Assembly (NCBI GenBank): GCA_963969395.1
Contig: OZ017801.1
Location: 21,767,611 to 21,831,610, forward strand
DNA length: 64,000 nt
Source of the DNA: Pseudoscleropodium purum
Lineage: Eukaryota > Streptophyta > Bryopsida > Hypnales > Brachytheciaceae
Reading direction: 5' to 3'
Shown here: in pieces, positions 14,064 through 53,600 of the stretch
Layout of the letters: the number at the start of each line of letters is the position of its first letter
Position numbering within the stretch: the first letter of the stretch is position 1
Notes under the pieces: generated by a model
Databases searched by the model: none
Told to the model about the DNA's origin: nothing
Seen by the model: only the letters and a program-made list of their open reading frames with translations
Translations under genes and position numbers: made by a program

Positions 14064-15557
14064 CTAATATAAATGGCGGAAATGTTCATCTGGCATCGGC
14101 CAACGATATGTATTAGACAATCGCGTAATCACATGGACCAAACTAGTATTTTCATCGTCAGTCTTCGAAGAAATGCGCTTCAAGTAAGCATAAAACACTT
14201 TTGCAAAGTCATGAAAGGTAAATTGTGTCGCACTAGGTGTTTTAAGTAGCACGTTGAAATACGCCTCTGACATGTTGTTTCCATTCATTCGCCGAGCAAT
14301 TTTTCAAACGACATACTCTTCCGACTTACGTGAATACATCGGAATGACTTCCACATCTGCACCTGCTTTATACAAATATGCAATACGTGGATCCAACCAC
14401 CATCTCCTCTGCAAAGTCTATTTCATCTCATCTGCTGATGTGAATGTGTACAAAGACTTCATTGGCTGAGAAGCTAAAGTGGTCATGCCCCAATCGCAAA
14501 CTCCAATGTATACACGTGACTCATCCTCTAGAAAATGCAATAAGATGTTGTTCGGAGAAAGATCATTGTGCAAATGTCCAGCAAGATGCACTGCATACAT
14601 TATATGCATAAACGCCCATGTCAGCTCTGTACGCTTCTTCCGATATCGCCCTAAACAATGAACTTTTACAACCTCCTTTTCGGTTGGATTCGTATACATA
14701 AAACGGATTTGAATGTTGTCTGGATAGTCCTTATCCATATTCAACATTTGTCGAAGAGTTCCACCGTTCCACCAATACACATAACCTTCACGCGGCGTTC
14801 CGTGCACCGCAGCAAACCGTATTACACCCGCGTGTGGAATTCGAACAGCCATTGATTCGTTTTGATGTTCTAACTTTGCAAGATCGGGTTGAGTTTGGTG
14901 GTGAATGGATTTCTTTGCCGCAAACTCCCAATAAGTAAGTATTCTTGGACATCCTTCAATACAAACTTTTCGAATCGTTGCATATCCACCTCTCATCGTT
15001 CTATCATCAACAGCAATCACGCGTGCTATATCTGGAAGTGCTATGAGGTACCGTTTGGTCCTTTCTGCTTCAGCAACTTCATCATTGCTTTTCCACCAAC
15101 CAATCGAACCAACTCGATTGTGCCTTTTGGCGAATGGAGCACATCGCCCCCTAAATAAGTTTGCTTTCAGAATCACTTCTTCAAACTGGGCGTCATTGGG
15201 TCGATATTCCTTGCTATATTTAACCAAAATGACTTTGGAATTCCACAAAGCGTCATGAACCTTGTTCTCCAAACATTTGGTGAAATGCGCTTTATGCATT
15301 TTGTCATGCCACTTTGCCACATTCAATGCATCCAACAACATCTGTGTCATGTGTACTTTGAATTTTGACACGCACTCCTCTTGATATCTGATGTACTTAT
15401 TGTCTAAAGACAATGTTGTTTCTGATTCATAAAATTGAACGATGCGCTCGATCATGAATTTTTTGCATTCTTCCGAAGGACTTTGGCGAGCTACCTCCAA
15501 GTTCGATGGTCCCTCTCCATGTTTAAGCTTCGCAACCTTCTTCTTCTCCTTCGTCAT
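14064..15557 (-). pseudogene. Kinase-like gene, copy 1, broken by two in-frame stops
   Basis: One reading frame of about 498 codons is interrupted by TAG at 14418-14420 and TGA at 14304-14306. The first 379 codons hold a lysine-rich start and an N-terminal domain (about residues 30-140) shared with the copy at 49928-51469. A protein-kinase-like fold follows: glycine loop GGYATIRKV (190-198), candidate lysine in AAKK (213-216), WWNGG (262-266), HNDLSPNNILLHF (330-342, HRD equivalent with Asp kept) and DWG (355-357, DFG equivalent). After the first stop the frame goes on with RRWWLDPRIAYLY, aligning to the APE region of the other copy, and runs to 14064. Substrate and role are unknown. A TATA element and a GC-rich tandem array lie directly upstream (15772-16320), as for the genes in the 36-53 kb transposon. 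It may be a relic of such an element. Confidence 0.75.
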
Positions 15558-15771
15558 CGTGGCAAATGAAATTGATATAGATGAAATTTTCTAATTTAAA
15601 TGTGAATTCCACGCGCAAATGTCAAAAAAATTGGCAACAAGGGGGCCCCAATAAACCACTCTTGCCTTGCCTAGGAAAGGAGCCAATGGAGGATAAACCA
15701 CCAAGCTCTCCGCTCCACCTTGCATTCACAAGGGGCAAAGCAAAAGTGACAATGCGGACGGCCCGACCGCC

Positions 15772-16974: not shown

Positions 16975-17273
16975 CATGGTTGTCATAGTGGATGGACGTC
17001 CGGTTCGCCCGTCCATTAGAGGTCCTGCCCGTCCAATACAGTCAACACATAGTTGACTTTCTGATAACGGAAAAATAGGCCACGTGGATGCCATGTGGAT
17101 TAAGGAACATGCTGGGCGCAGACGAGATTGTCAGGGTGCAGAAGAGGTGACGTGTCATTCCGCAAAATTGCACAAGTTACAAAATTAAAGCCGTCCGGAC
17201 CGTCCGTCCGTTCGGTCCGGTTTGACCGTCCGTCCCGTTCGATGACCCTAACTCGCCCATTATGACAACCATG
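16975..17273. mobile_element. hAT-type MITE (299 bp) with perfect 8-bp target duplication
   Basis: The termini are CATGGTTGTCATA (16975-16987) and its exact inverse TATGACAACCATG (17261-17273). The 8-bp flank ATTCATCC is identical on both sides (16967-16974 and 17274-17281), the target-duplication length of hAT transposons. The left half (to about 17130) matches the reversed right end of the large element (52640-52836), and the right half (about 17155-17273) matches its reversed left end (36313-36430). It is therefore an internal-deletion derivative of that family. The interior contains CGTCCG and 'gggcgcagacgag' words. Confidence 0.9.
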
Positions 17274-33869: not shown

Positions 33870-36304
33870 AGTCTACTTTATACTATAGCAGTCTTAGGAC
33901 AGGATGGAAGGCCAATCTAATTGACATGAGTTTGGATTCTCAATTTGCCTTTAATTGATGTAAAGTGATGGGGTCCAATTTTCAATCACATGCTCTTGAA
34001 TTTTTCAATGCATAATTTCAAAAAATATAAAATATTATCCTTTTATTTTTTCTTCTTATTTTTCTATTTCAAAAATAATACAAAGGTTTTTTTACTTTCT
34101 ATGAACCCCCCCCCCCCCCCCCTTTTTTTCCTATTTTTCCTACTTTTTGTACTTTTCAGAAGTGTAATTAAATGCAATTTGACTTCATTTATCATTATAT
34201 ATTTTTTGGTTATTTTTTAATCAATACACATTTAGTCTTTTTTCCTATTGTTGCTTTAATTTTTTGCAAACAAAAAAATGATGCTTTAGAGCATCACATG
34301 TGACCAAATAGAACTTGAAAATGACAATGTATTGAAAAGAGGTAGGTAGTCTTGTGCATGCCACCCCCTACAACCTAAACCATTGATTATTTTAAGAAAA
34401 AATTAAAACCCCTTAAGCTGCAGTTGATCTGATTTTACGAATATATCATGAATGATGGTGAATGTGGTTTGTCGATTGGTCTGAAAACAACTGTCAATGG
34501 AGTGCCAAATGTCATTGACCTGGATCACAATCCAGATGTAGATCCAGATCTAGATACGGGATACGGTTATGGAATATGGGTACATATATGGGTAAATATA
34601 CAAATATTGTATGGGATATAGATATTGTATGGGATACTATATGGAGATTTATCCCATATCAAATGCCACCCCTACCTTCACCTCAAAATTACAAAGTAGA
34701 AGGATGGGGGTGGGTTCCAATAAAAAATTAAATTGATTTTTAATTAACTTCATACTCAAGGGATTAATAATCAAAAATTGGAGTTTGAGCTCATTGTAAT
34801 AGTTTTATCACAATGACAATGAGTTCAAAAGAGGTAGAGCTACCTCACATTGTTTGGTGTTGTCTCACTAATGTTGCATGTAAAATTTCAAATTAGTTTC
34901 TCAATACATTCTTCAACATCCATGCAACCTCTAATGCCTCTATCATTGCACCCAAAAATTGTGCAACATGTGTAAAAAATAGAAAAATAGAAAAAAAATT
35001 ATATTGCATGTAAACATGCATGTCTCTATAGTAAAACCCATGATCCATAAACAAAAGATTGACTCAAACTAAGAACAAATCCATCTTTGAATCCCTACAA
35101 ACAACAAAATCCTAGGAAAAGTTTGACATTGCAAGTTCAAAAATTGGTTATTGGTATATTTGTAATTACCCACCAATACTCAATCCAAAATTCAAAGATT
35201 GGAGAAAACTAATCAATTGAGGAGCTAAAATTTGCTTTTCTAAATCAATTATGAGCTAAATTAACTATAAAAAATCAACTCACCTTAAAAATTAGCTATA
35301 AAAATTAATTGAAGAGCTACATTAACTATGAAATTAATTCACTATAAAAATTAACTCAGGAGCTAAATTAACTGTAAAATTAACTCATTGTAAAAATTAA
35401 CTCAAGAGCTAAATCAATTGAAAAAATTGATAGAAGACCAAAATTAACTATTAAAATTGATACACTACTAAAATGTACTCTTTTGAATCCAAATGTTATG
35501 AAATCTACGTGAATATTGTCACTTTTTGCTACTATGCCTATTTACTATTACTAATTTGGTTAAATCTTCAATTTTTCTTGTTGGCAAGTGAAAAAAAGTT
35601 CAAATGCACCAAAGAATACAACATTTAGATACCATATGCAAAAATAATAAAAGGTCAAAGTTTCAAATGAAGACTTTTGTTGCTTGATGCTAGAGATGTT
35701 TGTGATCCAACGAAGGAGCCCAATCAAGCCCAAGATGGAAGTTAGGCCACCCAAACTTCATCCTCATTTCATCACTAGAAGAAGCCTATGTTTTTTTTTA
35801 AGTTTCAAGCAAATGAGCATGTTTAAAAAACATGAGATCAAAGATGCAGTAGTGGTCATGGGAAGCTGAATTTAGTTGGATGTTTCTAAGAACATGTGTA
35901 TGTCACATGTATAACAAGTTTAGGTTTTTTTGTGATGGAAATATTTAATGAGACATTGAGAAAAACATATGCGAGTTGTTTTGAACATCCAAAAAAACAC
36001 GGACCTACCATGTTGGCAATGATGATTTGTTTTGTTGTGGGTAGCTTAGGGAAAGTTACTGTGAGGTCAAATCAAACAATGTTCCATTGTAGAAAGCAGA
36101 AAAGAGGGACATCTCCTTCCTACCTTCCAAAAAGACTTGCATGGATGGATGCAACACTTGAGATTCTTCGACATTTCTATTATTACTTCCAATATAGTAC
36201 AAATAGCATAAATAAGAGCTAAAGAACTAGTTTAATGTATTAGACCTTATTCTCTCCATTAATAGGTGAATGTAAGAAACACTGTCCGTTTTTGTTGCAT
36301 TGGC
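33870..36304. other. Non-coding stretch with simple repeats
   Basis: A 17-base C run lies at 34106-34122 followed by a T run. A GGGATA-rich patch is at 34550-34650. 35222-35480 is built from 'gagctaaattaact' and 'taaaattaactca' words (starts near 35222, 35253, 35314, 35360, 35406). The 108-codon ORF at 35896-36222 (plus) is unrecognised. No gene is supported. Confidence 0.45.
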
Positions 36305-36435
36305 CATAGTACCATGGTTGTCATAACGGGCAAGTTAGGGTCATCGGACGGGCAAACCGGACTGGATGGATGGACGGTCCGGACGGCTTTAATTTTGTAA
36401 CTTGTGCAATTTTGCGGAATGACACGTCACCTCGG

Positions 36436-36660
36436 AATGCAAAATCCAGGGCGCGGACGCCTTTAGGGTTTAGGTCAAGGCGTGGACTTCACTGTCAACG
36501 TCAGGGCACGGACTTGTGCAGGTCAGGCGCGGACTTCATCGTCAGCGTCAGGGTGCGGACTCGTACAGGTCGGGCGCAGACTTCATCGTGGAGTACTAGG
36601 GCGCGGACTCGTATAGGTTGGGCGTGGACCTCAACATTAGGGGCGGGTAGGACGCGGATT
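36436..36660. repeat. GGCGCGGAC array near the left end of the hAT element
   Basis: Repeated 'gggcgcggac' and 'ggtcgggcgcagacttc' words spaced roughly 30-45 bp. It starts about 120 bp inside the left terminus. The same words occur at the right end (52650-52690, reversed) and in the MITE at about 17113, so they belong to the subterminal part of this family. Confidence 0.7.
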
Positions 36661-37536
36661 TTATTTTATGGATTCCATAAGGTAGAAGGTCCGTAACCCC
36701 TTAAGGACTTTGTCCATTGCGAAATGGTCAAACTCCTTATTTGAACTAATTTCAGCCTTTTGAATACTGTTCAAACAACAATCTCAAATTTTCAGTACAC
36801 TTTCTTTGAAAGACAAAAAAATTTGGCACCTAGCCTAAGTTGTTTTAATTTGGTTGGATCATTCTTGAATTAGTTTTGAATTTCCAAACAAGATATGCGA
36901 TAGGTTCCTATCTGTGATCCCCAATTGTCCATAAATTGTTCATTTCAATTTCTAGAGAAAAATGATAAAAAACAAACAAACAAGAAGAATGATTTGCTCT
37001 TGCATTCATGAATAGTTTTTTTTTTCAATTTATTCAATGACATAGGAGGTCAATTCAAGAACCACTTCCAATCCATTCCAATGCCATTTACTGTAGCGGT
37101 TTAGATGCCTAAATAGTTTTTGAGCTTCCTACCTTAGAGGGGATTTAAAGAGCAAACATATGAAATTGATATATTTTCATTTAAAATAATGCCCAATTTG
37201 TCATTCAGGTCAATGTGCTTCTTATATTAAATAGGATTAGTATATAATATATTCCACATGATTGTACTCAACAGTGTCCAATGTTTCCAACATGCATGTC
37301 AAATACAAAAATATTACAGACATATTAGTAGGCTTCAATGTTTGTAATAACCAAAACTGTTTATATAATTTATGCATTGCAAAGTACAATAACAATAAAA
37401 TGAATCTATACTTCCAAATTACACCCACTTCCTCATAGGTTATCTAAGACATTCCTCTAGCTTCTCGTCCATCTTTCTTCCAATTGCTACAATTCTCTTC
37501 AACTCTTAAAGACACGAGATCTACCATCAATGCAAC
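36661..37536. other. Spacer between left array and transposase
   Basis: AT-rich with no ORF of note. 36880-36930 resembles an arm of the small MITE at 21150-21300. Confidence 0.4.
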
Positions 37537-40500
37537 TCAATTATTGAAACGACTTGACCTACGAACTCTTTGGGCACATGGATCTGCTACATTAGCATCT
37601 CGAACGACAACATCATCATCCTTTGGTGCCTCATCACAGTTTGGGTCATCCTTGTCATTGGCATCTTCGTTGCTTTCATATTCATCTTTTGCTTCACCAC
37701 TGTCTGTGGTCCAATGTCCTTCAACTTCTGAGTTTTCATTTCGAAGTTCTACAATAGTTTGACCTTGACTACGTTTGCGCTTGAACCTCTTATGACGTTG
37801 TGCATTGGAATCTTCTGCATCAGAATTTATAGTGGGCCCACTTGGAACTTGAGGAACAACAAATGCCGAGGTTGACCTACTAGATCCTGGTACGTATGTA
37901 TTCAAGAACAGTTCTATCACCCTATTCGGGTCTCTTGCCCCTATTCCGAGGGGTGGATGGTTAGTAGGCCTTGACGATGACGCTTCTCCAATATGTTGAG
38001 CTTCTGTTCCTCCACGGCCTCTAATCACTCCAAGACTCTAGTCACTCCACGGCCTCCAATCACTCCACAACCTCCAGCCCTTCCATGGCCTTGTTGATAT
38101 TGACCCACTTCATGATGAATAGGTGGCCGAGGGGCCGTAGGTGGTCTACCACCATCAAGACCATGGAAAATGCTTAGAGGAGTCATATCAACATTTTGCA
38201 TTGAGCCTAACCCTTTTTGAGAAGGTCTTTGGATGGCAGTGGAAGTTGCTGGTGAAGATGGGTTTAGTGAATTTGCCGTTTGGGTAGTTTGTTCAGAACC
38301 AGCAGCACGGCCCGCAACTAGAGCGGGTATACGGGCAAGGTCTTCCGGTGGTTCAGTAAATGCAAAAACATCATCTGGGTCTACATGCTCTGGATCAAAA
38401 CACCTTCTCACATTACCAGTTGATTGACTTCTTGCAATAGGGCGTGCCATTCTTGCATTTCTAACGTTTCTGTCGTGGTGTCCTTCAACAACTCTATTGC
38501 TGCGAGCTGATGCCCCCATTCCCGTATGCCCTGTATTGCCATTTCGACTGTGAGAAGATCCTTCACGATTTGGATTTACAGTCCTCCCTATGTTTCTACC
38601 GCCATTTCCATTTTCGCCGCCATTTCCATTTTCGCCGCCATTTCCTAGAGGGAGGTTGTCATCATTGTCGTTGTTGTTATGGGAGATACCATCATCAATG
38701 TCATCGTCATTTTGATTGGCAGTCTCTAAAGAAGACGACAAAGCTTGGACTTCAGCGACCCCTTCATTTTGAGGGAGAGGAGGTGAAGGACTGCGACGAG
38801 GATTGGGTACCCAAGGATCCCAACGACCACCAAGGAGTTCCTCCTCTCCATCATCAGCAGTTCCATAGTAGTTTCGCGCTTCCTCGAGGTGATCGACACC
38901 TCGCCTCCAAAGATCTAGGTTCGTCGGATACTCTTGAGGTGCCGATTGGCTTCCACATCAACCTCTTCTTCTTCCTCTGCTTGCATTGCGTCAAATTCCC
39001 AATTGCGTTCATTCACCGGGATCGGACCAAGGGCATCTGGATCAGAATCCTTTGAATAGATATTTGCATCATACCAACAAACTGGATCAGCTCCTGGTCT
39101 TTGATGAAGTACACGGCTATTGGTATAAATATATACCAATGACTCTGCCTTTGCAGGGGCCAATTGATTTCGGACCTTATTATGAACAAAGGAATGTATA
39201 CTCCAATTCCTTTTACAAGAGCTGGCAGAACAAGTGAGGATAAAATACGCACGGCAATTTTAGAAAGAGACTGATCTCCAACCCTGTGCCACCACTGGTG
39301 GGGAAGCATTTGGGTCACAAGGATGTTGGGTGTCTCAACTGCACTGTACGGTCTACTACCCTCCTCAAATTCTGTTAATTCCGCCAGCACATCATCAAAA
39401 TTCACACCCACTACATCTGCCATGTTGCGGATGACTCTATACAATGCACGTAGGGCAGTGCCGTCTACTCTGAGCGCCACGTTATCCAAGAGATATGGAT
39501 TCAAAAGGGCCGCGGCGTAGTAGGTATCTTCAAAAACCATGTCCCATCTTTCATTGAAAGACTTCTCCAAAGTGACTGCTATGTCATCTCATAAGCTGAA
39601 AGGTGGTTCTCTTAAAGAATACACATGTGCTTGCAAATTGTGCATTACAAGCCACGCCCAACCCATGGCTGGTTCTCGTCCATCAAACACACGTAAAGCC
39701 TTCAATACATCTTTAGTCATATACACGTAATTCACACATCATTGCTAGAAGGCCACATCTTCAATTGTTTTTTTGACATTATGTGAAGCAATAACTGCCT
39801 ACAGTCCATTTTGTTCGTTTCGTAGGGTATCATAGTAATTTAGAACACGTGGGTGGTTATTCAACCGCTCCAAGACTCCTCTGAGTCTCACCAGATGCTG
39901 CAACATGAGGAAATTACAAACAAAGCAAGTTTTGCTAGGCACTACGAGTTGTAGGTTTGGACTGAATTCACGAAAAACTGACATGGTCGCATGATGGTTT
40001 CGAATGTATTGGCACAATCTTTTTGCCCTATCAATTAAATCAGAAAACTCCTGGATTTTGGCCCAATCTTCCAACAGGAGATCCAATGCATGTGCCATGC
40101 AGCCTTGTGCAAAAATGTGCGGATACGTTCGAGTAATGTTTTTCAATGCCCCAAGCATGTTTGCTGCATTATCTGTGCAAACTTGTGTCACATATTTGGA
40201 ACCCACCTTCTCAATGTAAACTTTCATTTGGTCCGCTATGTAGCGCATGGTTTTCTTTTGGGAGGTAGTGTCAATTGACCCCAAAAGACATCACCTCCGG
40301 GGCATGACATCATCACATTCATGAAGGGCCTCTGATTGACATCATCCCAACCATCAGTGCATATCGTCACCCCGTAGTGCTTGACAGCAAAACTAACCTT
40401 CTCTTCAATCCGCTTCTTGATTTGCAACCTCCTTGGTTCAATTAAATTAGTCCTGAATTGATGGTAAGAAGGTGGACTATATTCAAACCTTGCCATTGAG

Positions 40501-41093
40501 GTTGCCTTCGCAGCCTCAATGAAGGCTGGATGCCTTGCCACATTAAATGGCACATTTGCTTCATAGAAAAAACTTGCCCACTTCTCATCCAACTCCTTCC
40601 TCTTTGCAATGTTGAATGCGTCCGCCATGCGCTGCTGACGTAATGATCCGGATCTTGTAGAATTCAATGCAGCAAGACTATTGGATGTATGTAGAATATC
40701 ATTTCCTTCAAAAACGTTTGCCCCTTCTTCCGCTCTCCTACCAGTGACCCCACCCGTCACCTCATTTTCAGTGGCTTTGCTTGAACTTGCAAGTGGAGTT
40801 GCTCTAGATGGCCCACTTTGAATTGGTTCTCCTTTATACATGTCCCCGGCATCCATTCGTAGCGGGACAGAACTTGCACAATTTGCAAATCTATGTCGCA
40901 CTGGACGAGGCATACTTTGACAAATTGACCTCTCCGATTTGGAGCCATATCCAAAATGTGCAAAAGCACGCTCCCGTTTGTAACTGAAGGTCCCAGTATA
41001 GAAAATACAAGTTACTTTATTCCCATTCTCCGTAAAGTGTAGCCATGGTTCCCATTCTTTGGTTTGCTTCCGTTGACTTGCCATTGCGTTCAT
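37537..41093 (-). pseudogene. hAT transposase (BED / DUF659 type), multiply broken
   Basis: Reading from 41093, a BED-type zinc-finger region comes first. It has W16-F20, one Cys of the first pair replaced by Tyr, and SMPRPVRHRF. A linker and a DUF659 segment (WASFFYEANVPFNVARHPAF ... CTDGWDD) follow. After a frameshift near 40270 come CTDNAANM and CMAHALDLLLEDW, the second catalytic Asp and the C..H motif of hAT transposases. Then there are stops at 39799 and about 39745 and 39588, the PHQWWHRVG block, a frameshift near 39240, and SASSCKRNWSIHSFVHNK of the C-terminal dimerisation domain. The protein then has a long acidic and Gly/Asn-rich tail with frameshifts near 38930 and 38028, ending at 37537. 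Coding character continues across every break, so these are lesions and not introns. It would have catalysed cut-and-paste of its own element. A TATA box and a GC-rich array lie upstream (41337-41640). Confidence 0.85.
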
Positions 41094-41336
41094 TGATTAT
41101 TTGAAATGCCTTCCTCCTTTTTCGTATAGATTTTAAGAAGATAGTAGATCTACCGGACAAAGTATCAATAACGTTAGTTAGCACTAATCCACTGCTTGAA
41201 CTGATTTTGACATCACCTCAGCAGCAAACCAGGGCCATCTGCCACCCAAGTGACTCACAAGGAGCTCAAAATGAATTGAAGTTCAAGAGATAGAGGCCAA
41301 GGTGACAAATGTGGGGAATATTGGGTTTAGGGTTTT

Positions 41337-41345
41337 CCTTATATA
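41337..41345 (-). promoter_or_regulatory. TATA box (TATATAAGG) of the transposase gene
   Basis: A minus-strand TATATAAGG, 244 bp upstream of the ATG at 41093, with the GGCGCGGAC array immediately behind it. The identical 9-mer serves the RING-like gene at 49452-49460. Confidence 0.6.
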
Positions 41346-41354
41346 CTTCCGGAA

Positions 41355-41640
41355 TGTAGGGGCGTGGACTTCACCGTTGTGTGTAGCAACAAGGCGTGTA
41401 CGTCTTCAATTCCAAAGTATAGGACATGGACGTACAGTCTGAGAATTTCTGAAAGAGGTCGACGTTCACAATGTACACTTGAATCCCTGGCATCTAGGCG
41501 GGGACGGGAAGTCAGGGCGCGGACGTCAAGGCGGGGACTTCATGTCAGGGCATGGACTTCAGGGCGCGGACTTCATGTCAAGGCGCGAACGTCGGGGCGC
41601 GGACTACAAGGCACGGACGTGCTCGTCCAAGACATCAGGA
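41355..41640. repeat. GGCGCGGAC array upstream of the transposase
   Basis: Repeated 'gggcgcggacttca', 'ggcggggac' and 'gcgtggactt' words, densest at 41510-41620. The plus-strand ORFs over it (41364-41747) are repeat translations. Confidence 0.75.
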
Positions 41641-42829
41641 GGGACTTTGAAATGCACTTGGAGATGAGATCCTTGAATCCTTCTTTTCCTTGGAGCGGGG
41701 GAAACATTAATTTTAGCAAAAACAACTTGTTTCAGATTCTGACATGACCATGAATGCAAGATGCCAAAATAAAGAGCTCAAGGGACTAAGATTTGGAATG
41801 AACTTCATGGAAGAGCATGTCCCCTTTGTTGTTGTTGTTCCTTACTTCTTTTAACACTTCAAACTACTTTGAAGCAAAAAATATTTTGTGTTGTAAAAAA
41901 TTAACTCTAAATTCTTCGATTTAGGAAATGTTTAGGATATTTTGAGGATGTATTTAGGACATATTTAGAAGATGTAGTCTACTAGATAAAAGGGTAAAAC
42001 TTAATTTGTTTAGAATGAAAGAAATAGTAGGGATTTAAAAGAATAAATTCTAAGCCTTCAATACAATACTTGAATTTTTTATTCCATCATTCTCTTTCCA
42101 ATTTTTTCCCACATCATAAGCAAAACTATCCCATCCAAAGTCAATGCCATTTGTTTATTTCTTAATTCGTTTCCTTTTCCATTATTCTTGCTTCATTAAT
42201 GAGTAGAACTCTTCAATTTTTTTCCTCCAATGCTTAAATTCTTTTATGCCAAGTCATTGTCATTCCTTAGTTGTTGAATCATTTTATTTACTTTTTCTTT
42301 GGCTTCATTCCTAAAACTCTTGCATCCAAATCGAATGCCAATTTTTTGGTTCAATCATTATGTTTCCTATTTTTTTCCCATAATTAGCAAAATTCTCGAA
42401 CCCAACTCTATCACTCTATGCCATTCTATTTTTGTTGCATCATTCTCTCTCTTATTTTTTTTGGCTTCATACCCTAAACCCTCCCATCCCAACTTATAGT
42501 TTGTTTGTTTTTTCGGTTGATTTATTTTTTTCTCTACTTTTATTAACTTGAATAATTAGTTACAATTTTTTTTGAGGTTATGAAGGAAAATTAAATACTT
42601 GGATTTACCATTTGAATTGCATTTTCACATTAGCATGTGGTGGAAAATTAGCTCAAAAAAATGGCTATTGTATTGTCAACTTCCACTACATCTTCCTATT
42701 GCAAGCTTTTTTGGCATGTCTTCTAAGTATATTTTACTATGCCAATTTGTGGAGATATGCCTAACAAAATTTAAAGTACGAAATTTTTTTTAATTCAAAA
42801 TCCATAGTGCAAAATTTTTCCACAAATGG
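41641..42829. other. AT-rich spacer inside the hAT element
   Basis: T-rich on the plus strand. Short hydrophobic ORFs (42299-42499, 42599-42793) are composition artefacts. No gene is seen. Confidence 0.4.
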
Positions 42830-43082
42830 CGGTCAAAGTCATCTGAAATTGTAGGGCAGTGTTCAAAAAAACTTTTTGTTCAACTTTGAATGCTTGTATC
42901 TTTCAATCTATAAAGTCAAACTTAATGAAATTTTTACCATGAAATCTTAGGAAAGTTAATTACAAGATCCCATAGTTAGATTTTTTTATAAATATTTCCT
43001 TAAAGCCTTGGTCGAACACAGCAGAACTAGCAATTTTGAGTGGTTTTTGATAGTGAAATGGCCTTGGGACTTTAGGGGTTAA
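42830..43082 (-). repeat. Truncated TTAA-bordered repeat
   Basis: It ends CTTTAGGGGTTAA at 43070-43082. Reversed, it matches the first ~230 bp of the element at 32928 ('gggatcttgtaattaa' against 'aggatcttgtagtaaa', 'ggtaaaaatttca'). No opposite end is found. It lies inside the giant hAT element. Confidence 0.6.
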
Positions 43083-43789
43083 GAGATAATTATTTATAAC
43101 ATTGTTTTTTTTTAATTTATCTTTTGTTGTTTCATTTTAGTATTTTTCTTTGAGTATATTATGCTATCTATTAATATTTTTTTCCATTTATTATTTATGC
43201 TCTTTTCTAGATTTTTTTTTCACATTTGTGGCCTACAACTATTTATTTTTTTAATTTTTTTTTCAAAATATTTTTAATGTATTTGATGTTTGGTTGTGCA
43301 TTGCATTTAAATGTATAAAATGTAGGAGTTTATGTTCTTTGAAAGAATTGGAGCTTTAAATTTCTGGATCAAAAATATTTAGATTCTATTCCAAATGGTT
43401 ATTTTTGTATTTTTCATGAATCATGATATAATGACAATCAAAGTTTAAGTACCAAAGACATAATATGTATCATTGAATGTCTATTTTTTGATGAAATGGA
43501 AGAGTATGAATTCAAAGAGTACAAAAATATTATGAGTACCGTTACAAGCATAAAAGAATGTGCTAACCATGTAACATCTAATGCTCATTTAAAAATAGGG
43601 CTTATGTACGCACTTGACAAAAAAATCTAAACTTTTTGTGTTGAAATTGTAATTTCAATGCTATTGTGTTTTTTTATATATTTTTTTGTTTTAACTAATT
43701 TTTTGATTTTTTAGATGTTAACAAAATTTACTTTAAACTATTTTTTGTAAAAATAGGTACAAATAAGGATAATATAGGGATATTAAAAT

Positions 43790-44059
43790 CTACCCAAACT
43801 TTATAATTTTGATACCCACTTTTTGATACCCACTTAAAATTTTGTTTTTTTGCTTGCTTCCAACATCCCTCTTTCTACCTTCTAAATTTTTTTTGACACC
43901 AATGAAGTCATCTTGTGTTAGAAAAGAAGAATCTTCTTTTTTGTCCTTTAGTTGCAGAGTATTGGGAGCATTTAGGGGACACTCGGAGGCACGTTGACCA
44001 AATTCATGGCAACAATAATATTGTTTTGATTTTTTAAAATAGCTCACAATTTGAATCAA
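43790..44059 (-). pseudogene. Possible Gag zinc-knuckle remnant
   Basis: An 89-codon ORF with YYCCHEFGQRASECPL, resembling a CCHC zinc knuckle (C-x2-C-x4-H-x4-C) in which the first Cys and the His are substituted. A Lys-rich tail follows. Knuckles of this style occur in plant retrotransposon Gag proteins. No protease, integrase or reverse transcriptase is visible nearby. The assignment is tentative. Confidence 0.3.
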
Positions 44060-47017
44060 ATAGGTAATATGCTATAAATTTTATATTTAAATAGGGATTC
44101 AAATAATCTAGAAAAGCTCAAAAATACCTAAAACCTCTAGGTTCATAATTGAACCAATTGGATGCTTACAATTTTTACAAGGCTATTCTACTAATTGTAC
44201 TTTGCCTATTAAAAAAAGATTTCCAAGCTAGCTCATGGTTTAAAGGACTAAATCCAAGTTCAAAAAGAGACCCTTAATTAAGGTTTTAAGTTGCATTTTC
44301 AATAAAGGTGATTTTGCAAAATATCAATTTTCTAAATAAAAAAATTAATGGTTTCTTCACCCTATTTTTGTATATCTAACTATAAACATCTACCTGCTAC
44401 ATTTGCAAATTTGAATTTTAACCTCCAAAACTCTTGGCTACGAGCCTACGAGCTATATTGATTAGAAATTAGTTCAAAATTTTTACAAAGAAATTTAGAC
44501 AAAATGAAAAAACTTAAAGAAAGACCATAAATTTTATTAAGTGTAATATATACTTCAACAATCCCTCATATTTTCATCTATCTCTTTCAGATGCAAGAAG
44601 GCAAATGTAATCACTAAACATAACAAACTAGAGCCAATTCAAATGAAGGAAGCAAAAGTCTCCTGGAAACCAATACCAGAGTATCTTTAGCTGAAAAAAT
44701 TGCCATACAACCTTGAGTGCAAGCACACAAAACAATTCACTTACCTTAAGCAATGGATTGAACTTCAGGATTGGACTTCTGGAGGATCGTGACTACTAAG
44801 CTTTAGACGATTCCCCTTCACTTGCGCAGAATTGAACTTTAGGCGGATCGACCATTTGAGGAGATACTAACTAAACTAAAGAGCATCCCCACCGGGGGCC
44901 TTTCCTATCCCTATCCGGATGATTTTCATCCGGATTGGGAAGAATAGCTCAGTCCCCACCAATGTATTGTATCTCCAAAAATTAGGGGAGGAGGGGTTTG
45001 AATCAAGGCTTTTTTTTTGGACAAGTGTCCCCCCCTGTTGGCCTTCTTGGCTTCTTATAGTGGCCAGTTTTTTGGACTTCTTTAACAAAAATATTGAGTA
45101 CAAATTTTGAGAAAAATGCAAGTATTGTCATCTTCATTACAAAAAAATACACTACATTTATTTAGGGTCAATACATTTTCCTATTGAAAATTTGAAATGG
45201 GAAATGGTTGAAGTGATTGCTATAATTAGAAAATATAGATTACAACTTCATCACATATCAAGCAATTCTCCAACAATGACATGTGAAAATTTATGAGCTT
45301 TATTTCAGTTGTATCCACCATAAATTTTTATTTAACTACCCTCTACTACTAATGTGGTGGGAAAAGTGTATCATATATATCTTGCAAATTCAAACTAGAT
45401 GCTAAATGGACGCTAAATTGCTTGAAAAACAACATTGTCCATAACTTTTTCATTAGTAAACCAAATAGAATGAATCAAAGATTCATAAGTAGACAAAAAT
45501 GTATCATTTGAAGAAAAAAATTCAAAATTTTAATTGTCTTTTTTCACAAAAAATTTGTTGCCCACCAAGTTTAGTTTTAGAGACCAAAATATTGAAGGGG
45601 CATATTGTGGAAAATTATAGATGTTTGAAATATGATTTAGTACCTCCAAACACTTCAATGACTATTGATGTACAACAAAAGTAGATATTTATATAGTATG
45701 GAATGTCAATTAACATGAGTCTCTTCATAACCCCTATTTAGTGCATATGTTACTACTACTAACACCAAATAGTGAAATTAATTGGCTTAAATAATTAGGT
45801 TGCCTTAGGCCTTATATAAAAAAGTTATTTTTCAAGTCATCCAAAATTCTAAGTCAAGACCCAAGAGATATTTCTACATATATTTCCATTTGAGGTTTAT
45901 GAATCTAGATTATAGCAATACCTAATTTAAAAGTAGTGTTGATTCTTGAATAGTGATAGTAAATGTTTGTAATATAGTGTCAAATGTCAAGAAATTAGTG
46001 TGAAGCAAGCCAATTTCACTATTTAGAGTATATAAGAATAGTTATATGATATATCCTCATTTAGTCATTTAGTTTCTATTCAACAAATATAGTTGATAGT
46101 TAATGGTAGGTTTTATTGCAAAATGAATGTGGTGTGTACATGGATGATTGGACAAAACATTTGTTTTATCTACTATAGTTTGTAACATTACTCATGAATT
46201 TTTTTAGAGTACTTAAAATTAGGATATCAATTTTCAAAATTATGTATATGGCCAACCTAAACACCTTTAACATGAAGGTAATTAGTAAAGGAAATTCTTA
46301 AAAAATTCTCTAAAAAGGAGAATTGAAGAAGTGTCAAACTTCCTAAAAATAGACACTTTGTAGTAATTAATGTTTTAAATTTAATTAATAAAGAATAGAT
46401 AAATGAAATAAAAATTGGCCATTTATAGTAATAGCTCTAAAGGGATGTTCATTTATCAAAAAAATTGATTGCAAGAAATATATGTACTATTTTATATCAC
46501 ACCTAATGTATCGATTGGTTTTTTGGCTATAATTTTTGCATTTTGGCTCCAAATGACTCAAAATGCCACTTTTTTTTTTCTTTCATTAACAACATTTGAA
46601 ATGCGTTTTCTTCCAATATAATGACATTTGTTGTCCATCCCTAATTTTATTCATTGATTGAAAAATGGAAATGAATCCTAGTCCAATTCAATGACATTTC
46701 ATTTCATGATATAAATATTCTTATATGTATGAAGTTGTTTGAAATGAATATGTGCAAAAAATAAATGAAGTGATTTTGGGCAAAACAATTCAAAACAAAA
46801 TTATATATATTTCATATGCGTCATGTAATACAGAGTTGAAAAAGTAGATGACAAAGTTACCATGACCATGACACCATCCAAAAATGCATGTGCCAATGTG
46901 TAATATAGTTAACAATTTATATTGCTGAGATCAAAATTCTATAAGCCTATACAATGCTATGAAAATAAGTCTTCTATGAAAACATAAATTCAGTACCTAA
47001 AACCCTCAAAACTGTAC
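44060..47017. other. AT-rich spacer inside the hAT element
   Basis: Mostly featureless. 44881-45060 is a more GC-balanced patch beginning GAGCATCCCCACC, a style of terminus seen in plant MITEs, with a local palindrome TCCGGATGATTTTCATCCGGA-like near 44915. No gene is seen. Confidence 0.4.
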
Positions 47018-49322
47018 TTAATCAATGTTCATTGGACTGCTTGCACTGCCACTTGGGCCAACCTCGTTGTCATGTGTCCCTACAATGATGGGAAGGTCTT
47101 CGTCCGAGCCTAAACGAAGTCTATGAATTGTAGATCGAGTTGTCCGCATTGGTCCGTCTTCTTCCAATACAGCCCTTAAGATTTGTGATTGTCTGAGGCT
47201 CTCAAGATATTGGTGAGTTTTTGGGCTATGCCGTTCAAGTAAGAAGTCCATCCCTTCATTCCTAAAGGTTTCTCGCCACTCTGACTCCAATAATTGTGCG
47301 AGTTCAGCAAGGTCAGGCATGTCAATGTTGTTCACCATACGAATTCCATCGTTGTTAGTAAAACGAACTCCATCAACACCCCACAACCATTGTCGAGGAT
47401 GAGGTCCAAATTGGAAGTTTTGTCCACCCTCGTTCCAATGCGCATTGAAGCATTGGTAGAAGAAATTCCGTTGTCCTTGGCTGAACTTGTCCTTCATTCG
47501 AATCAAGTGGTGACACACCTCCACAATTTGAGCCGGATCTCTTTCCCAACCCCATTTTGCACCAAGGTGTTGTTTGTCCAACGAATGAATGTTCAATTTC
47601 CAACTCCACATCAAGTCGGTTCCCCACTTCTATGAATGATCAGGGGCATTTTGAGCATTGAATTCCCTATGTGGTGGCATGTAGGGAACTAATCCAAACA
47701 ACTCATACAAGCGCTCACGGAAAGGAGCCTTGCACAATGAACACCGTCGACGAACAATCATCAAGCTAATTAGATAGAATGGATGGTAGACGTGTTCGCA
47801 CGTGCCTAGGTGCATTCCACCTTCAGGGCCAAATGGATTTAGACAAATGGGACATGTAGTACCATCATACACAAAGGTTGAAGGATTTGGCCATAGCAGT
47901 AGTGGATTGCCATTATGGTCGAGGGAAGAGCCAACTTCGTTCTTGAAATCCCAACCATTTTTGGACCAATCGATGACTGTTGTTATACCACCAATGTCTT
48001 TGGTCGCCATTTCATCCATGTTGAAAAGATCATCCACAAGGGCCCACAATGTCAAACCAAAAACCCTCTCTTGATTGTATGCGCCATAATAGTTGTCAAT
48101 TTTTTTGAATTCCAACACCATTTGCCGAGTCTGATCAACAATGAAGACGCATGCCATCTTCCATTGGTAATATTGCTCCATCAATGCTTGCAATTGATTT
48201 TTAAAATCTCAAATTGTTTGCAAGCGTGTCCGTCAATTGGGTGCTTTGGAATACTGGCATTGCTGCAACTGCATTCGTGGGTAATTCTTCAAAGGAAAGT
48301 CAATCATCTTGAGTACCCAGTGGTGCACTGACTTCAACATGTCGCATTGGAATTTCAGAATTGTTTGAAGGCCCTTGCGCTTCCCTTCCTCGATGCTAAC
48401 CATCATTGGCCAATGTGGCTGCCTGAAGAGCTTGCCGAAGTACCTCCATCTCATGTTGTTGTTCACTTATAATATTGTTCTTTTCTTGGAGTTCGTCCCT
48501 CAATTTGTTAACATCTTCATACAAAGAATGCAATTCTGCATTTCTGTCTTCCACTTCAATTCTCAAGCTCTGGATTCGGTTTGCAGCAGCTGTAACATCA
48601 ACAACTCCTATTGTTGGTTCATTAGTAGTCGGCACTTGTTCCTCCACAACATTTTCTGGTAAAACCTCATCATCTATACGCTCAATCCTCCTCTTTTTAG
48701 CACGTTGTTGTGCTCTATGCCTCAAAACAATTGGCACATGAGATCCATCGGAGTCACTATGCGTGGATGAGTCCTTAGTGTCACGTGCGGGTGGTACCCT
48801 AACCTGTGTGGTTCTTTTCCCTAGTCCACTGTCCGAGTACCTTTTTACCCCCATTGGAATGAATCCATTTGCCGGGGTAGGAATTTGGACTTTGTCCCCC
48901 ATTGTCTTCAAAGTTGACCAATCCATTCTCTTGTTCAACTTCAACTCTGCATAGACCCCTCGTGCAATGAAGAGATGCACTTCATTGCGTTTGACGTCGG
49001 GGACATCATACAACACCTGGTACATTTCAATGCATCGGTTTGTGAACTCCTCGTCAAGGCAATGTTTTAAATTTGCCTTGTGGAAGTGTCGGTGATGGTT
49101 GTGGCGCTCTTCCGGGAAGACCTTGTCAATGTGGCACCACTCGATGTAGTTGGCGCAGTCTTCATAAGTCCATGGGTCAAGGACGTCCTCCCACCCCTTG
49201 AATGCAAATTTTGTGGGGTTATATAGAACATGTAGGCGCTTGCAATGTTTGTTTCTTGGTCGTAGTCGGGTTTTGTCTCGTTCTTCCTTGGTCCTTCTTG
49301 TCGGTGTCGTCGGTGTCGCCAT
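47018..49322 (-). pseudogene. Coiled-coil / RING-like gene, broken cargo of the hAT element
   Basis: From ATG 49322 the frame encodes a basic N-terminus (TRRTKEERDKTR), a domain of about 150 residues I do not recognise (WEDVLDPWTYEDC ... MDWSTLK), a basic nuclear-signal-like RAQQRAKKRR and a C-terminal heptad-type coiled coil. It stops at 48396. Coding character continues across stops and a frameshift to a second segment (48193-47630) with CPICLNPF ... CEHVYH ... CSLC, a RING-type zinc finger whose sixth ligand (usually Cys) is Tyr. After an in-frame TAG (47630-47632) the same frame runs on for 198 codons (47614-47018) with tryptophan-rich blocks. RING proteins are usually E3 ubiquitin ligases, but the missing ligand and the stops argue against function. 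It is divergent from the kinase-like gene, with a shared GC-rich promoter region. Confidence 0.65.
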
Positions 49323-49927
49323 TTTCGCGAAAAACCCGCAAAAACCTCCCATGTAGCAATCAAGAGGACCCCGCACAACGCTCACAACCAACTCAATGAA
49401 GAGGTGGAAGGCTGAGAGTATGCAGGGCGGGGACGAATGGGGAGGGGATGGCCTTATATAGTGGCCGGTGGAGGACGCCAGGGCGTGGATGCCATCGATG
49501 CTGGGGCGCGGACGCCTTTTGGTCGGGGCGCGGACTCCATCGTGGTTGGGGCGCGGACCTCTAGGCGGGGACGCGAACGAGCCGGGTGGGAACGCCATGA
49601 GGACGGGCGAGGACGTGAAAAGACGGGGCGGGAACGCCATGATGGTAGGGCAGGGACGCGAAGTGACGGGGAGGGGCAGGGACTATATAAAGTGAGTCCC
49701 CGCCCTCATTCTCTTGCCAAGTCCGCGCCCTATGCCTCACACGCTAGTTCGTCCCCACGGCCTATGTGAGTGAGTTTGGTGGGTGGTGGGCTTGGCCCAA
49801 ATATATGGGGTGGACTTTTTGAAATTTTTTAAAACTTTCGTGCTATAGGATTGATACGGAGGCCCATCAACCAATTTTTCCAACCATTATGACAGGGGAA
49901 GGGAGTGGAACGGCATAGAAACGTCCT
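49323..49927. promoter_or_regulatory. Divergent promoter region built on a GGCGCGGAC array
   Basis: A GC-rich array (about 49430-49720) of 'gggcgcggac', 'ggcggggacgcgaacg' and 'gggcgaggacg' words separates two outward-facing TATA boxes: TATATAAGG on the minus strand at 49452-49460 and TATATAAAG on the plus strand at 49684-49692. The first is 130 bp from the RING-like ATG (49322), the second 236 bp from the kinase-like ATG (49928). In-frame upstream codons to 49640 of the minus-strand gene are array translation and are excluded from it. Confidence 0.65.
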
Positions 49928-51469
49928 ATGTTTGCAGATTTGGATGATGTCGGTGAGATGGTAATTCCATCTATGAACACGTTGATGGTCTCAGGTTCAT
50001 TGAATCCTTCTTCATCAAGCCAGAAGAAGCGCAAGAAAGTACAAAATCCCCATATGCCTCCACATGAATTTCTAGTGGAAGGGAGAGCAATAGCTGTGGT
50101 GTTCTACACTCGGCGAAGTACATCTATGTTGTCGAGGGAGTACGTGGCGTTAAACGAAGAAGGGTACCACAAATTGACATGGGACGTGCGAAGGGAGCTG
50201 GAGTCAAAGTTTGAAGCATCTGAGAAATTCAACAATTTCTTAGATTATTGGTTGCACCAAGAGTGGTTGGATAAACAAGTGGTTGCCTTCACAATCAATA
50301 TAGTGTCAAATTGGTGTTAGCACATGGGTAAGAAAGAGGATGGCAACGATTGGGACATGCAAAACAAAGAGGTGGTTTCAAAATTGAGCCTCATTCAAAA
50401 GTTTGCTCAACAATATTCTTCTTCACGCAAGAAAAAGCAAGCACAGTGGAGAGTGACAATTGAAGACTCGATAACAGTTCATTGTGTGAGTAGAACATTC
50501 AAGTGGCTTGAAAGTTCCATGAAAGTCATCCCCATGCTGGAACAAATTGCAATTGGATCATATGGGACCGTGAGGAAGGTGATGCTTACGAAATTGGAGA
50601 GCATTCCTAGTTGGATACTTTTTGTTGGGAAAAGCTTGAAGACTACAAATGAAAAGGAGAAGTGCCAAGCAATCATCAATGAGGCAGGAGGGTGTCCAGT
50701 GAAGCATCCTGGCATCATTCAAATTGTATACCTCCACCCCAAAACGATGGAAGGCTACACACTATGGTGGAATGGAGGATCTCTAATTTCTTTCTTGTCC
50801 AAATACAATTCGAAAGTGAGCGAATTAGTGGATGTGGATGAGATTGAGCGTCAACAAGGTACGGGGTTGACGAAAGAGGAACTTGCATGGGTTGCAACTT
50901 ATCGCCGAAATCGAGTGACCTTGGCACTCTCATTGCTTGTGATTGTGGGGAAATGCCACGATGTGCAATACATACACAACAACATATCTCCATCAAATGT
51001 TTTGCTCCATTTTGATAATTGGAAAGAAAATAGAGTGTGTATAGGGATATGTGATTGGGGACTTTCTAGTCGAGTTGTAGAGAAGGAGCCATCAAAGTAT
51101 GGCTATCCCAACATGGAGATCCTTGCAAAGGAGAAAAAAATGCGAAGGTTTGTAGCCCCAGAATTGTTTTATGTATACGGAGAACAAGGTTCGGCAAATT
51201 CAATCGAAGCCATGCAAAAAACGCATTTGTACTCCATGGCTGTTGATGCATATGCGGCGGGATGGATAGCTGCTGCAATTTGGAATGAGGAGTGGGACCC
51301 CAAATACTTTACAATGAAGAATCTAGAGCAATATCAAAATCTCATGATCAAATTGGGAAGCCTTGTAAGAGAAGATGTGAATGAAAGGGTGTCAGTGTCA
51401 GATGTTCTAGATACATTGAAGAAGGCCCCCCACTCTTGGACCATACCAGATATTTGTTATGGTACATAG
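49928..51469 (+). pseudogene. Kinase-like gene, copy 2, with one in-frame stop and degenerate catalytic loop
   Basis: One frame from 49928 to 51469 is split by a single TAG at 50318-50320. The first 130 codons match the N-terminal domain of the copy at 14064-15557 (FYTRRSTSMLSREY against FYESETTLSLDNKY). The following 381 codons are kinase-like: glycine loop IGSYGTV (77-83 after Met 50324), lysine in FVGKSLK (K103), WWNGG (148-152), HNNISPSNVLLHF (218-230), DWG (244-246), APE (278-280) and VDAYAAGW (307-314, subdomain IX). The catalytic-loop Asp is Asn here, while copy 1 keeps it. This is either a pseudokinase or decay. The TAG may be a recent nonsense mutation or separate two ORFs. It lies inside the giant hAT element and diverges from the RING-like gene. 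Confidence 0.75.
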
Positions 51470-52639
51470 TTTTTTGTTTTTCTAATTTTTTGGTAGTTTA
51501 GTATATAGTTCAGGTGTAGAAGGTAAATCATCCTCATAGGGGACCATGTGTACCTACTTGGCAATTGCCAAACACCACAAATATATATAAAATTGAAAGT
51601 ACAACATACTCAAAATCCCATTCTCTATGAATGTGCCATTTCATTGTTCTTTCCTCATGGCAATTTTTATGACTTCAATGAATAGACGATATTGTAGTAA
51701 ACAAAAACTATAAATGCAATAGCTTTCAATAAAAATACTTAATCTTTGAACGTCTTGATCCATTGTGAAATGGTCAAACTTCATACCTAAGCACAACATT
51801 GTCATCTAAATTGCATTCAAAAAACAATCTTATATTTTTATCATTTGAAACTGAGAATTGTATATCACTACAAGAAATTTGAATTTTTTTTGTGAAAAAT
51901 TGTAATTGTTATCATTTTTGTAGCAAAAAATAAACATAAATAAGTAAAAATAGAAAAATAGTCCAAATTATTTGAAATTTTATCAAGAGGTATAAGTAGC
52001 TATGGAGATTAGTGTGGAAATTTTTTGATTGGTTATTTTATTTTTTACAACCAAAACAAGCACAACAAAGACCTTGAAGTCAAATTCAACTATCAAACCA
52101 AATTTATCCTTTTGTTTAATTGACATATAAAATTTTGATATTTTTTTCTAGTGAAAAAATGAATTTTCTATTCATGCTGATTTTTCCAATTATTTTGATG
52201 TAAAAATCAAATTATAGTGATTTTTTAAAGCTAAACGTGAAAATAAAATGATATCAATTATAATTCATATTAGAATAGTCTGTATTTTTTTTCATAAATG
52301 AGGGATAGAATGGGAATTCTAATTTTATAGTTCAAATTTAAAATCCGTTTTAAAAAGAAAATACAAATGAAAAATACACAATACTGAGTTATTTGGATTT
52401 TAACACATTGAACTTTTTATTGCAATAACTTTTCCTATTTTTGACATTTTTCAAAATTTCAAAATGGAATAGAAAGAAAACTTGGCAAGCTTCATTTTTT
52501 TAGTTTACTTCAAATTCCAAACATACTTATTTTGAAAGTTACAATTGGGGTTGACCAAGGCGCATCCACTTTTGGACGCTTGGACCTTTAAGGGTTAAGC
52601 ATCTTTTTCCCACTATGCATATGTCTTTTTTCATTCCAA
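51470..52639. other. AT-rich spacer before the right end of the hAT element
   Basis: CACTACAAGAAATTTG at about 51867 looks like a CACTA-type MITE start without a visible partner. A degraded TTAA-family terminus (CTTTAAGGGTTAA) lies at 52586-52598. No gene is seen. Confidence 0.45.
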
Positions 52640-52844
52640 AAAAGAATCTCATCCGCGCCCTGACGATCTCGTCCGCACTGAGCATGTTCCTTAATCCACA
52701 TGGCATCCACGTGGCCTATTTTTCCGTTATCAGAAAGTCAACTATGTGTTGACTATATCGGACAGGCGGGACCTCTAACGGATGGGCGAATCAGATGGAC
52801 AGGCGAACCGGATGTCCACCCACTATGACAACCATGCATAGTAC

Positions 52845-53600
52845 TCATGATTTTTCCAACAATACTATAAAATTAGAAAAAAAGTTGAAAAATATGTTTA
52901 ATGTATAAGCCTTTAAGGAGAAGGTATCCTAGGAAGGAAAAGCATGGAAATGTTATTTAAGTAGGAGAACTAGAAAAGTGCAAAATCTCATGAAAATAGG
53001 TACTTTGACATTTTAATTTGTAATAAATAGGAATTTTTTTTAATGAAACTAAAAATTGGAAATTTGAGAGGACTTCATAATGAATAGATTTCACTAAATA
53101 AATGATCTTGAAACCATATTCAATGTTTAGAATTCCGTGTGCAAGGGAGTCATGTTTGTATGAATGTAGAAGACATAAAATAATATTTTTTAAAGTTTTT
53201 TTTGGTGGGCACATGCTTTTTTAGTGTGAAAATAGATCTCACAAATTATAGCTCTAGATCATTAATTTTGGGTAGTCTCCAGTACTAAAAATCCCTAAAT
53301 CAAAAAGTGTGACAAATTAGCTAAATTGAAATTTAAACATAAAATGATTTTTGAAAATTTCTGAAAAATAAAGTCCCTGATTATTGTCTAAATGCTAATC
53401 TTCACAAAAAAAATTCAAATACATTGGCTTCAATTTGCAAAAAGTATGACCAATTACAACTTAGAAAGTGCAAGTGTGACACAAAATAGTATTAGTGTTT
53501 CTTGCATTCACCTTGATACATGTTTTTTTGGTCCCTTGTATATGAAAGAAAATTCTACAAATTTTGTGCTTATTTGTTGCATATTCCTTTTCCAACTACA
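52845..53600 (+). repeat. Host repeat, uninterrupted copy
   Basis: It aligns with 29293-29422 joined to 30859-31450. It abuts the right target duplication of the giant hAT element. The paralogous empty site reads 'ccataatactcatg' at about 29294, against 'catagtactcatg' here. It provides the empty-site control for the insertion at 29423-30849. Confidence 0.7.

What the first reader, a model, noticed from the sequence alone, without database searches (positions are those of the whole stretch)
36305..52844. A 16.5-kb hAT transposon carrying a kinase-like and a RING-like gene
Perfect 13-bp inverted termini (CATGGTTGTCATA) and an identical 8-bp flank (CATAGTAC at 36305-36312 and 52837-52844) bound 16,524 bp. 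That interval holds a hAT transposase pseudogene plus two unrelated gene families. A chance match of the 8-bp flank at positions already fixed by the termini is about 1 in 65,000. hAT elements normally encode little beyond the transposase. One this large with gene cargo and repeated GC-rich promoters would be an unusual class.
Basis: partly seen in the sequence, partly recalled or inferred. Interest (0 to 1): 0.93.

Follow-up and report, generated by a model that had tools for sequence, protein, structure and literature searches.

The report
Three-gene hAT transposon in a plant
This stretch is a decayed copy of a 16-kilobase jumping gene whose family usually carries, besides its own transposase, a protein kinase gene and a RING-finger gene, so these "cargo" genes look like working parts of the transposon and not accidental passengers.

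Summary
In detail: perfect 13-bp inverted ends and a perfect 8-bp duplication bound 36313-52836 (16,524 bp). The joined flanks match 38 other genomic places across the junction (empty sites). In a sister family (B) 10 of 11 copies examined, 16-18 kb long, have perfect, mutually different 8-bp duplications around the whole unit. Genome-wide, 46 of 67 related transposase hits have both a kinase and a RING hit within 20 kb, in 46 of 46 in the order transposase-RING-kinase with the kinase divergent (shuffles: mean 0.1). Another kinase in this window belongs to a distant third family, some copies of which pair at fixed spacing with distant transposase or RING genes. Kinase A versus B suggests purifying selection (dN about 0.33, dS about 3, saturated). 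A 10-bp GC motif lies near ends and before the genes, with none in the flanking sequence examined. The window copy is dead. Best reading: a hAT lineage with resident accessory genes; that kinase and RING protein protect or regulate transposition is inferred. The papers searched gave no description of it that I recognised.

The parts
36313..52836 (.). whole hAT element, 16,524 bp (family A copy, decayed)
   Evidence: TIRs and TSD; empty-site matches
36305..36312 (+). target-site duplication CATAGTAC, left
52837..52844 (+). target-site duplication CATAGTAC, right
36313..36325 (+). 13-bp terminal inverted repeat, transposase side
   Evidence: 23 of the 42 rows begin at query 62-64, i.e. 36311-36313
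52824..52836 (-). 13-bp terminal inverted repeat, kinase side
   Evidence: same terminus at the same place in two relatives
37546..41087 (-). hAT transposase pseudogene (DUF659), frame broken in several places
47021..49289 (-). RING-H2-like gene, broken; one zinc-ligand Cys lost in this copy
49874..51460 (+). protein kinase-like gene, broken by an in-frame TAG at 50318-50320; catalytic Asp replaced (HNN)
36449..36608 (+). GGGCG(C/G)GGAC motifs, left subterminal (36449, 36599)
41515..41604 (+). GGGCG(C/G)GGAC motifs upstream of transposase (41515, 41562, 41595)
49425..49730 (.). GGGCG(C/G)GGAC motifs between RING and kinase genes (six sites)
41650..47010 (.). A+T-rich spacer; 97% identical to two relatives from 43772 and from 44107 onward
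16975..17273 (.). 299-bp MITE of the same family (left end + right end), TSD ATTCATCC
14256..15590 (-). kinase-like gene of the distant family C (26% identical to the element kinase)

Best explanation
Shown: the 36313-52836 interval is a single hAT insertion, a dead member of a plant hAT lineage in which transposase, a RING-H2-like protein and a protein kinase travel together as a ~16-kb unit. Inferred: the three genes are a co-regulated set. A factor made by the element (transposase or the N-terminal domain of the RING protein) binds GGGCG(C/G)GGAC near the ends, to assemble transposition, and at the gene promoters, to keep them expressed. The kinase and the RING protein (a presumed ubiquitin ligase) act in trans to protect or regulate transposition, by removing host silencing factors or by controlling the transposase. 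Broken copies and MITEs are moved in trans by intact copies. Confidence is for the structural part (about 0.95) together with 'resident accessory genes, not passengers' (about 0.85); for the anti-silencing role alone about 0.3.
For: Empty site: joined flanks give 40 matches (40 of 408 candidates scored), 2 being the window's own halves and 38 running across the junction; a B copy at C47:18187819-18205817 sits in a MITE end, joined flanks 46/48 to the window MITE with one copy of CCCATTAT. Mobility as a unit: 10 of 11 B copies examined have perfect, different 8-bp TSDs, spans of the ten 16,073-17,999 bp. Linkage: 46 of 67 transposase hits (at least 43% identity) with both genes within 20 kb, 46/46 the same order, 46/46 divergent kinase, within-chromosome shuffles mean 0.1, max 2. 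One B copy read in full has open frames (stop to stop) of 1169 aa transposase (DUF659 + Dimer_Tnp_hAT), 760 aa RING and 731 aa kinase. Selection: kinase A vs three stop-free B copies dN 0.33-0.34, dS 2.9-3.2, saturated. Seven of eight RING ligands invariant in 21 relatives; kinase H, N and N invariant and K, D, D conserved in at least 90% of 35; HNDLSP in 24 of 25 B kinases, search string not found in the 25th. The kinase model matched PDB kinases (probability 1.00, TM 0.33-0.39 by query length). Motif: 11 in A and 0 in 47,476 bp outside; 20 in B and 0 in 9,939 bp outside; about 0.05 expected even in the GC-rich pieces. Family C: 17 of 66 distant transposases 4.5-6.7 kb from a C kinase, all divergent; 6 of 47 distant RING hits 8.2-9.2 kb from one, all opposite strand.
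Against: 21 of 67 transposase hits lack one or both partners within 20 kb. 16 of 25 B kinases of full hit length carry stops, against 4 of 21 transposases (places differ), so the kinase is not needed in every copy, and within B dN/dS is near neutral (kinase 0.67 in 9 stop-free copies, transposase 0.85 in 17). One B copy (C49:5080114-5096075) has no matching TSD. The motif's centre base is not a clean family mark: B is G-type (19 of 20 in the copy read in full; no C-type in 25 kinase loci), but A is mixed (window 9 C: 2 G; relatives L040 2: 1, L041 2: 5), and the window's right end holds only a partial site. In family C no listed locus shows all three genes, and one kinase-RING locus has no transposase in the 1 kb read at the usual place. 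RING matches stay below Pfam cut-offs; the RING model is poor (pLDDT 59) and found no PDB match. Nothing tests binding, expression or enzyme activity.
Confidence: 0.85

Rival explanations
1. The kinase and RING genes are captured host genes carried as passengers (a Pack-TIR-like capture), amplified by chance.
For: Many B kinases are broken (16 of 25); near-neutral dN/dS within B; MITEs show that the ends alone suffice. The origin of the genes was not tested.
Against: The same gene set in the same order recurs in A and B, whose kinases are about 57% identical with dN/dS about 0.11 (dS saturated), and pairwise in C; the motif stands before the genes in both families.
Confidence: 0.07
2. Accessory genes act on the transposase itself: the kinase phosphorylates it and the RING protein degrades it, limiting copy-number damage, rather than fighting host silencing.
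For: Trans-acting genes tolerate broken copies; B keeps a 304-aa RING-less version of the RING protein beside the kinase, open over the part read in 16 of 24 B loci, as expected of a regulatory truncation.
Against: No direct evidence for a target; equally compatible with a host target.
Confidence: 0.3
3. The interval is a chance or composite: two unrelated element ends or nested insertions around ordinary host genes.
For: The termini are abundant in the genome, and two relatives lack a transposase hit.
Against: Left and right ends are of one family, perfect TSD, 38 empty-site matches, 10 of 11 sister units with TSDs, 46 of 46 constant gene order.
Confidence: 0.01
4. The element descends from an integrated DNA virus whose kinase and RING genes were kept.
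For: Kinase and RING genes are common in large DNA viruses (recalled, no call).
Against: In the Pfam scans of the element's ORFs only DUF659, hAT dimerisation and kinase families reached their cut-offs; hAT ends and TSDs. No viral library was searched.
Confidence: 0.03

Closest known systems
hAT superfamily DNA transposons (Ac/Ds type) and their MITEs
   Same: 8-bp TSD, short TIRs, DUF659/Dimer_Tnp_hAT transposase, MITEs from internal deletion
   Different: 16-18 kb instead of a few kb (typical size recalled); two or more conserved non-transposase genes; motif clusters at genes and ends
VANDAL elements of Arabidopsis with the VANC anti-silencing protein (PMC5735166; abstract and one results section read)
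   Same: Multi-gene plant DNA transposon; short motifs in tandem clusters in non-coding regions and upstream of genes, with variants that differ between subgroups
   Different: Not a hAT; VANC carries DUF1985/DUF287 and is not a kinase or RING protein; motif binding was shown experimentally there, only inferred here
ToxhAT/ToxTA (14 kb, wheat-pathogen fungi; PMC12506042, 12 passages read)
   Same: Cargo-bearing class II element of similar size, originally called hAT
   Different: Reclassified there as probably Tc1/Mariner (TA TSD, 74-bp TIRs), single copy, non-autonomous; here 8-bp TSD, own hAT transposase, 29 B-type trios in the lists
Starships (giant fungal transposons; listings of PMC11623301 and PMC12153272, one passage of PMC12506042)
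   Same: Large cargo-carrying elements
   Different: Tyrosine-recombinase captain (DUF3435); here a hAT transposase and a constant gene set

Membership tests
hAT superfamily | 8-bp target-site duplication | tested here: met
   window element and MITE; 10 of 11 B copies examined
hAT superfamily | TIR of about 5-27 bp (range as given in PMC12506042) | tested here: met
   13 bp perfect in the window; 13/13 at both ends in 9 of 10 B copies and 12/13 at one end in the tenth
hAT superfamily | transposase with hAT C-terminal dimerisation region | tested here: met
   B transposase Dimer_Tnp_hAT 7.5e-8 and DUF659 2.2e-36; the broken window pieces gave DUF659 only
hAT superfamily | catalytic transposition by this transposase | not testable with these tools
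   no assay
Starship | tyrosine recombinase captain (DUF3435) | tested here: not met
   absent in Pfam scans of the ORFs given
VANDAL/Mutator-like | MULE transposase and VANC (DUF1985) protein | tested here: not met
   absent in Pfam scans of the ORFs given; TSD is 8 bp
VANDAL-like motif system (works like) | short motif array recognised by an element protein | tested here: inconclusive
   array shown; recognition not tested
Pack-TIR gene capture | cargo differs between copies | tested here: not met
   constant gene set and order in 46 of 46 trios
Pack-TIR gene capture | cargo copied from host genes | not tested
   no search for host single-copy relatives was made

The most novel reading that the evidence does not exclude
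An old plant hAT lineage has evolved its own regulon: a transposase, a RING-H2 ubiquitin ligase and a protein kinase under one element-specific GC-rich motif that also marks the ends. Motif and reader co-evolve (B almost purely G-type, A mixed and mainly C-type in the window copy), and kinase plus ligase disarm host silencing post-translationally, a mode of transposon counter-defence that I did not find described.
Probability: 0.25. Interest if true: 0.9.

Novelty: new variant of a known kind. Interest (0 to 1): 0.78.

Why it matters
hAT elements are usually thought of as a transposase plus ends (recalled). A lineage that has kept a kinase and a RING gene through deep divergence, with a shared cis motif, would show that a cut-and-paste transposon can carry accessory genes that act on signalling or protein stability. 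One B copy with all three frames open was read in full, and eight rows list a transposase frame of 1169-1181 aa without a stop in the hit, so its function is testable in the living plant.

Tried and rejected
Chance or composite ends: rejected by the empty-site search. 'Cargo-free distant family as negative control': only 2 of 66 distant (at most 35%) transposases had both genes nearby, which I first took as a control; one search showed that this family has its own, too distant kinase, so the control is void.

Family C as a full trio: not shown; no listed transposase and RING hit of C share a locus, and at one kinase-RING locus the 1 kb where a transposase would start gave no match to the B proteins or to the fetched homologues and no frame of 90 aa.

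TSD by blind search in the first B copy failed; the right terminus was then found by its TIR, without matching flanks. Far ends of the two nearest relatives: only 401 bp of one could be read, which resembles other repeats of the window. A fold search with the RING model gave nothing.

Literature: the listed papers (10-20 per search, of up to 766 that held the terms) include none that I recognised as describing such an element, judged by title and start of abstract; one search found no paper. I read the abstract and one section of PMC5735166 and 12 passages of PMC12506042; the rest only as listings.

Dropped before counts: 4 of 30 kinase loci had no WWNG match and were left out; one search used 106 of the 151 RING matches (the rest of those printed, mostly 28-32% identical, went into, one weak row into neither); one search used only hits of one length, 25 of 30 kinase and 21 of 30 transposase loci, and compared A with only 3 of the 9 stop-free B kinases. 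The 10 B copies were chosen because both ends could be predicted. The copy counts rest on capped lists and are lower bounds.

Full report
Setting. The window lies in an unnamed 313-Mb genome, 11 contigs of which sum to 312 Mb. A SABATH-type methyltransferase domain (PF03492) at 24585-25226 says plant (family knowledge, recalled); a bryophyte is my guess only. The only named transposase relatives among 30 whose name gives an organism are in Closterium, weakly (24-31%).

The observation. Inverted 13-bp ends and 8-bp direct flanks are exactly as reported. The 13-mer occurs 968+980 times in the genome against 1+7 for its reversed control; 76 of the first 100 sites listed pair inward at 88-332 bp. 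A 299-bp MITE at 16975-17273, with its own duplication, is made of the left and right ends of the same element. Joining the flanks of the 16.5-kb interval at one CATAGTAC and searching the genome gave 40 scored matches (of 408 candidates); apart from the window's own two halves, the other 38 run through the junction. So 36312 and 52845 were neighbours before insertion, and the interval came in as one piece.

The genes. A sister copy (family B, C49:5080114-5096075, 15,962 bp) gives the intact plan, frames counted stop to stop: a 1169-aa transposase with DUF659 and hAT dimerisation domains, a 760-aa RING frame, a 731-aa kinase frame and a further RING-less copy of the RING protein's N-terminal half beside the kinase (328 aa, 304 from its Met). 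That fourth frame is open over the part read in 16 of 24 B loci. In the window the corresponding genes are broken: transposase 37546-41087, RING 47021-49289, kinase 49874-51460 with a TAG at 50318-50320. The window kinase reads HNN where at least 90% of 35 relatives have HND, and its RING lacks a cysteine that is invariant in 21 relatives. It is a dead copy.

The genes belong to the element. After merging, 67 transposase hits have at least 43% identity; 46 have a kinase and a RING hit within 20 kb, each time in the order transposase-RING-kinase with the kinase divergent (46 of 46); 21 lack one or both. Placing kinase and RING hits at random within their chromosomes gives 0.1 on average and at most 2. 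Of the 46, 17 have the RING in the window's orientation and 29 (family B) have it inverted. Ten further B copies, picked because both end positions could be predicted, show perfect 8-bp duplications, all different, around 16,073-17,999 bp; the first B copy does not. One of the ten sits in the end of a MITE of the window family, and the joined flanks read as that MITE with a single target site. In one search, 27 of the 30 rows that reach the kinase-side terminus of B begin at query 1112-1115 (the others at 1094, 1109 and 1120). The two nearest relatives of the window element (kinase 91% identical) have CATGGTTGTCATA at the same kinase-side place.

Age and selection. Kinase A versus three stop-free B copies: dN 0.33-0.34, dS 2.9-3.2, about 0.11; dS is saturated, so the ratio is rough, but it says that the kinase was under purifying selection while the families diverged. 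Within B (21 kinase loci 97.2-98.9% identical to L048) ratios are near neutral and 16 of 25 kinases carry stops, at many different codons, as expected of copies that can be served in trans. The ORF 14418-15590 in this window is a kinase of a third family, C (26% identical), with 106 scored matches, itself included, the others 88-92% identical to it. Seventeen of 66 distant transposases lie 4.5-6.7 kb from a C kinase, all divergent; six of 47 distant RING hits lie 8.2-9.2 kb from one, all on the opposite strand. The association is therefore probably older than the A/B split, although no C locus in the lists shows all three genes.

An element-wide motif. GGGCG(C/G)GGAC occurs 11 times in the window element and not in the other 47,476 bp; 20 times in the B copy and not in the 9,939 bp fetched around it (a looser form occurs once there). 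In B the sites lie near both ends and upstream of transposase, RING and kinase; in the window near the left end, upstream of the transposase and between RING and kinase, with only a partial site (GCGCGGA, 52658) at the right end. A first-order model of just the GC-rich pieces expects 0.05. The centre base is almost purely G in B (19 of 20; no C form in 25 B kinase loci) and mixed in A (window 9 C to 2 G, relatives 2 to 1 and 2 to 5). On checking, this mixture made me lower the odds of the co-evolution reading from 0.30 to 0.25. VANDAL elements of Arabidopsis show similar logic, with an element protein that binds the motif and removes methylation (PMC5735166). I infer, but did not test, that an element protein reads this motif.

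Mechanism. Shown: a transposing unit with resident kinase and RING-like genes. Inferred: one motif serves transposition at the ends and expression at the promoters; the kinase and the presumed ligase act in trans. Whether they act on host silencing or on the transposase is open (about 0.3 each). The kinase model has a kinase fold (pLDDT 82; PDB kinases); the RING model is weak and without PDB match.

Relation to the known. By TSD, TIR and transposase it is a hAT element. It differs in size and in conserved accessory genes. ToxhAT, a 'cargo hAT' of fungi, has been reclassified as probably Tc1/Mariner (PMC12506042). I therefore rate it a new variant of a known kind.

Noticed in passing
window 14256-15590 (-): Kinase-like gene of a distant, abundant family C (106 scored matches, about 90% identical), some of which pair at constant spacing with a distant hAT transposase or a distant RING gene elsewhere.
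   Followed up: partly
L069 (C49:5083809-5084792): Family B carries a second, RING-less copy of the RING protein's N-terminal half, divergent from the kinase, open over the part read in 16 of 24 loci.
   Followed up: partly
L070/L071 (C49:5098524-5101928): About 2.4 kb from the B element lie two neighbouring frames (206 and 928 aa) that look by eye like another hAT transposase with a zinc-finger-like start; not scanned against Pfam.
   Followed up: no
window 24128-25226 (-) and 2634-3038 (-): SABATH-type methyltransferase gene piece (PF03492) and, by eye, a similar piece about 20 kb away: probably broken duplicates.
   Followed up: no
window 61611-61976 (-): Weak DDE_3 transposase remnant, below the Pfam cut-off.
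   Followed up: no
window flanks at 36213-36312 and 52845-52944: The insertion site lies in a dispersed repeat with at least 38 other copies at 82-91% identity.
   Followed up: partly
window 41650-47010: The spacer contains pieces (about 42781-43082 and 45415-45580) of a dispersed repeat found in dozens of places.
   Followed up: no
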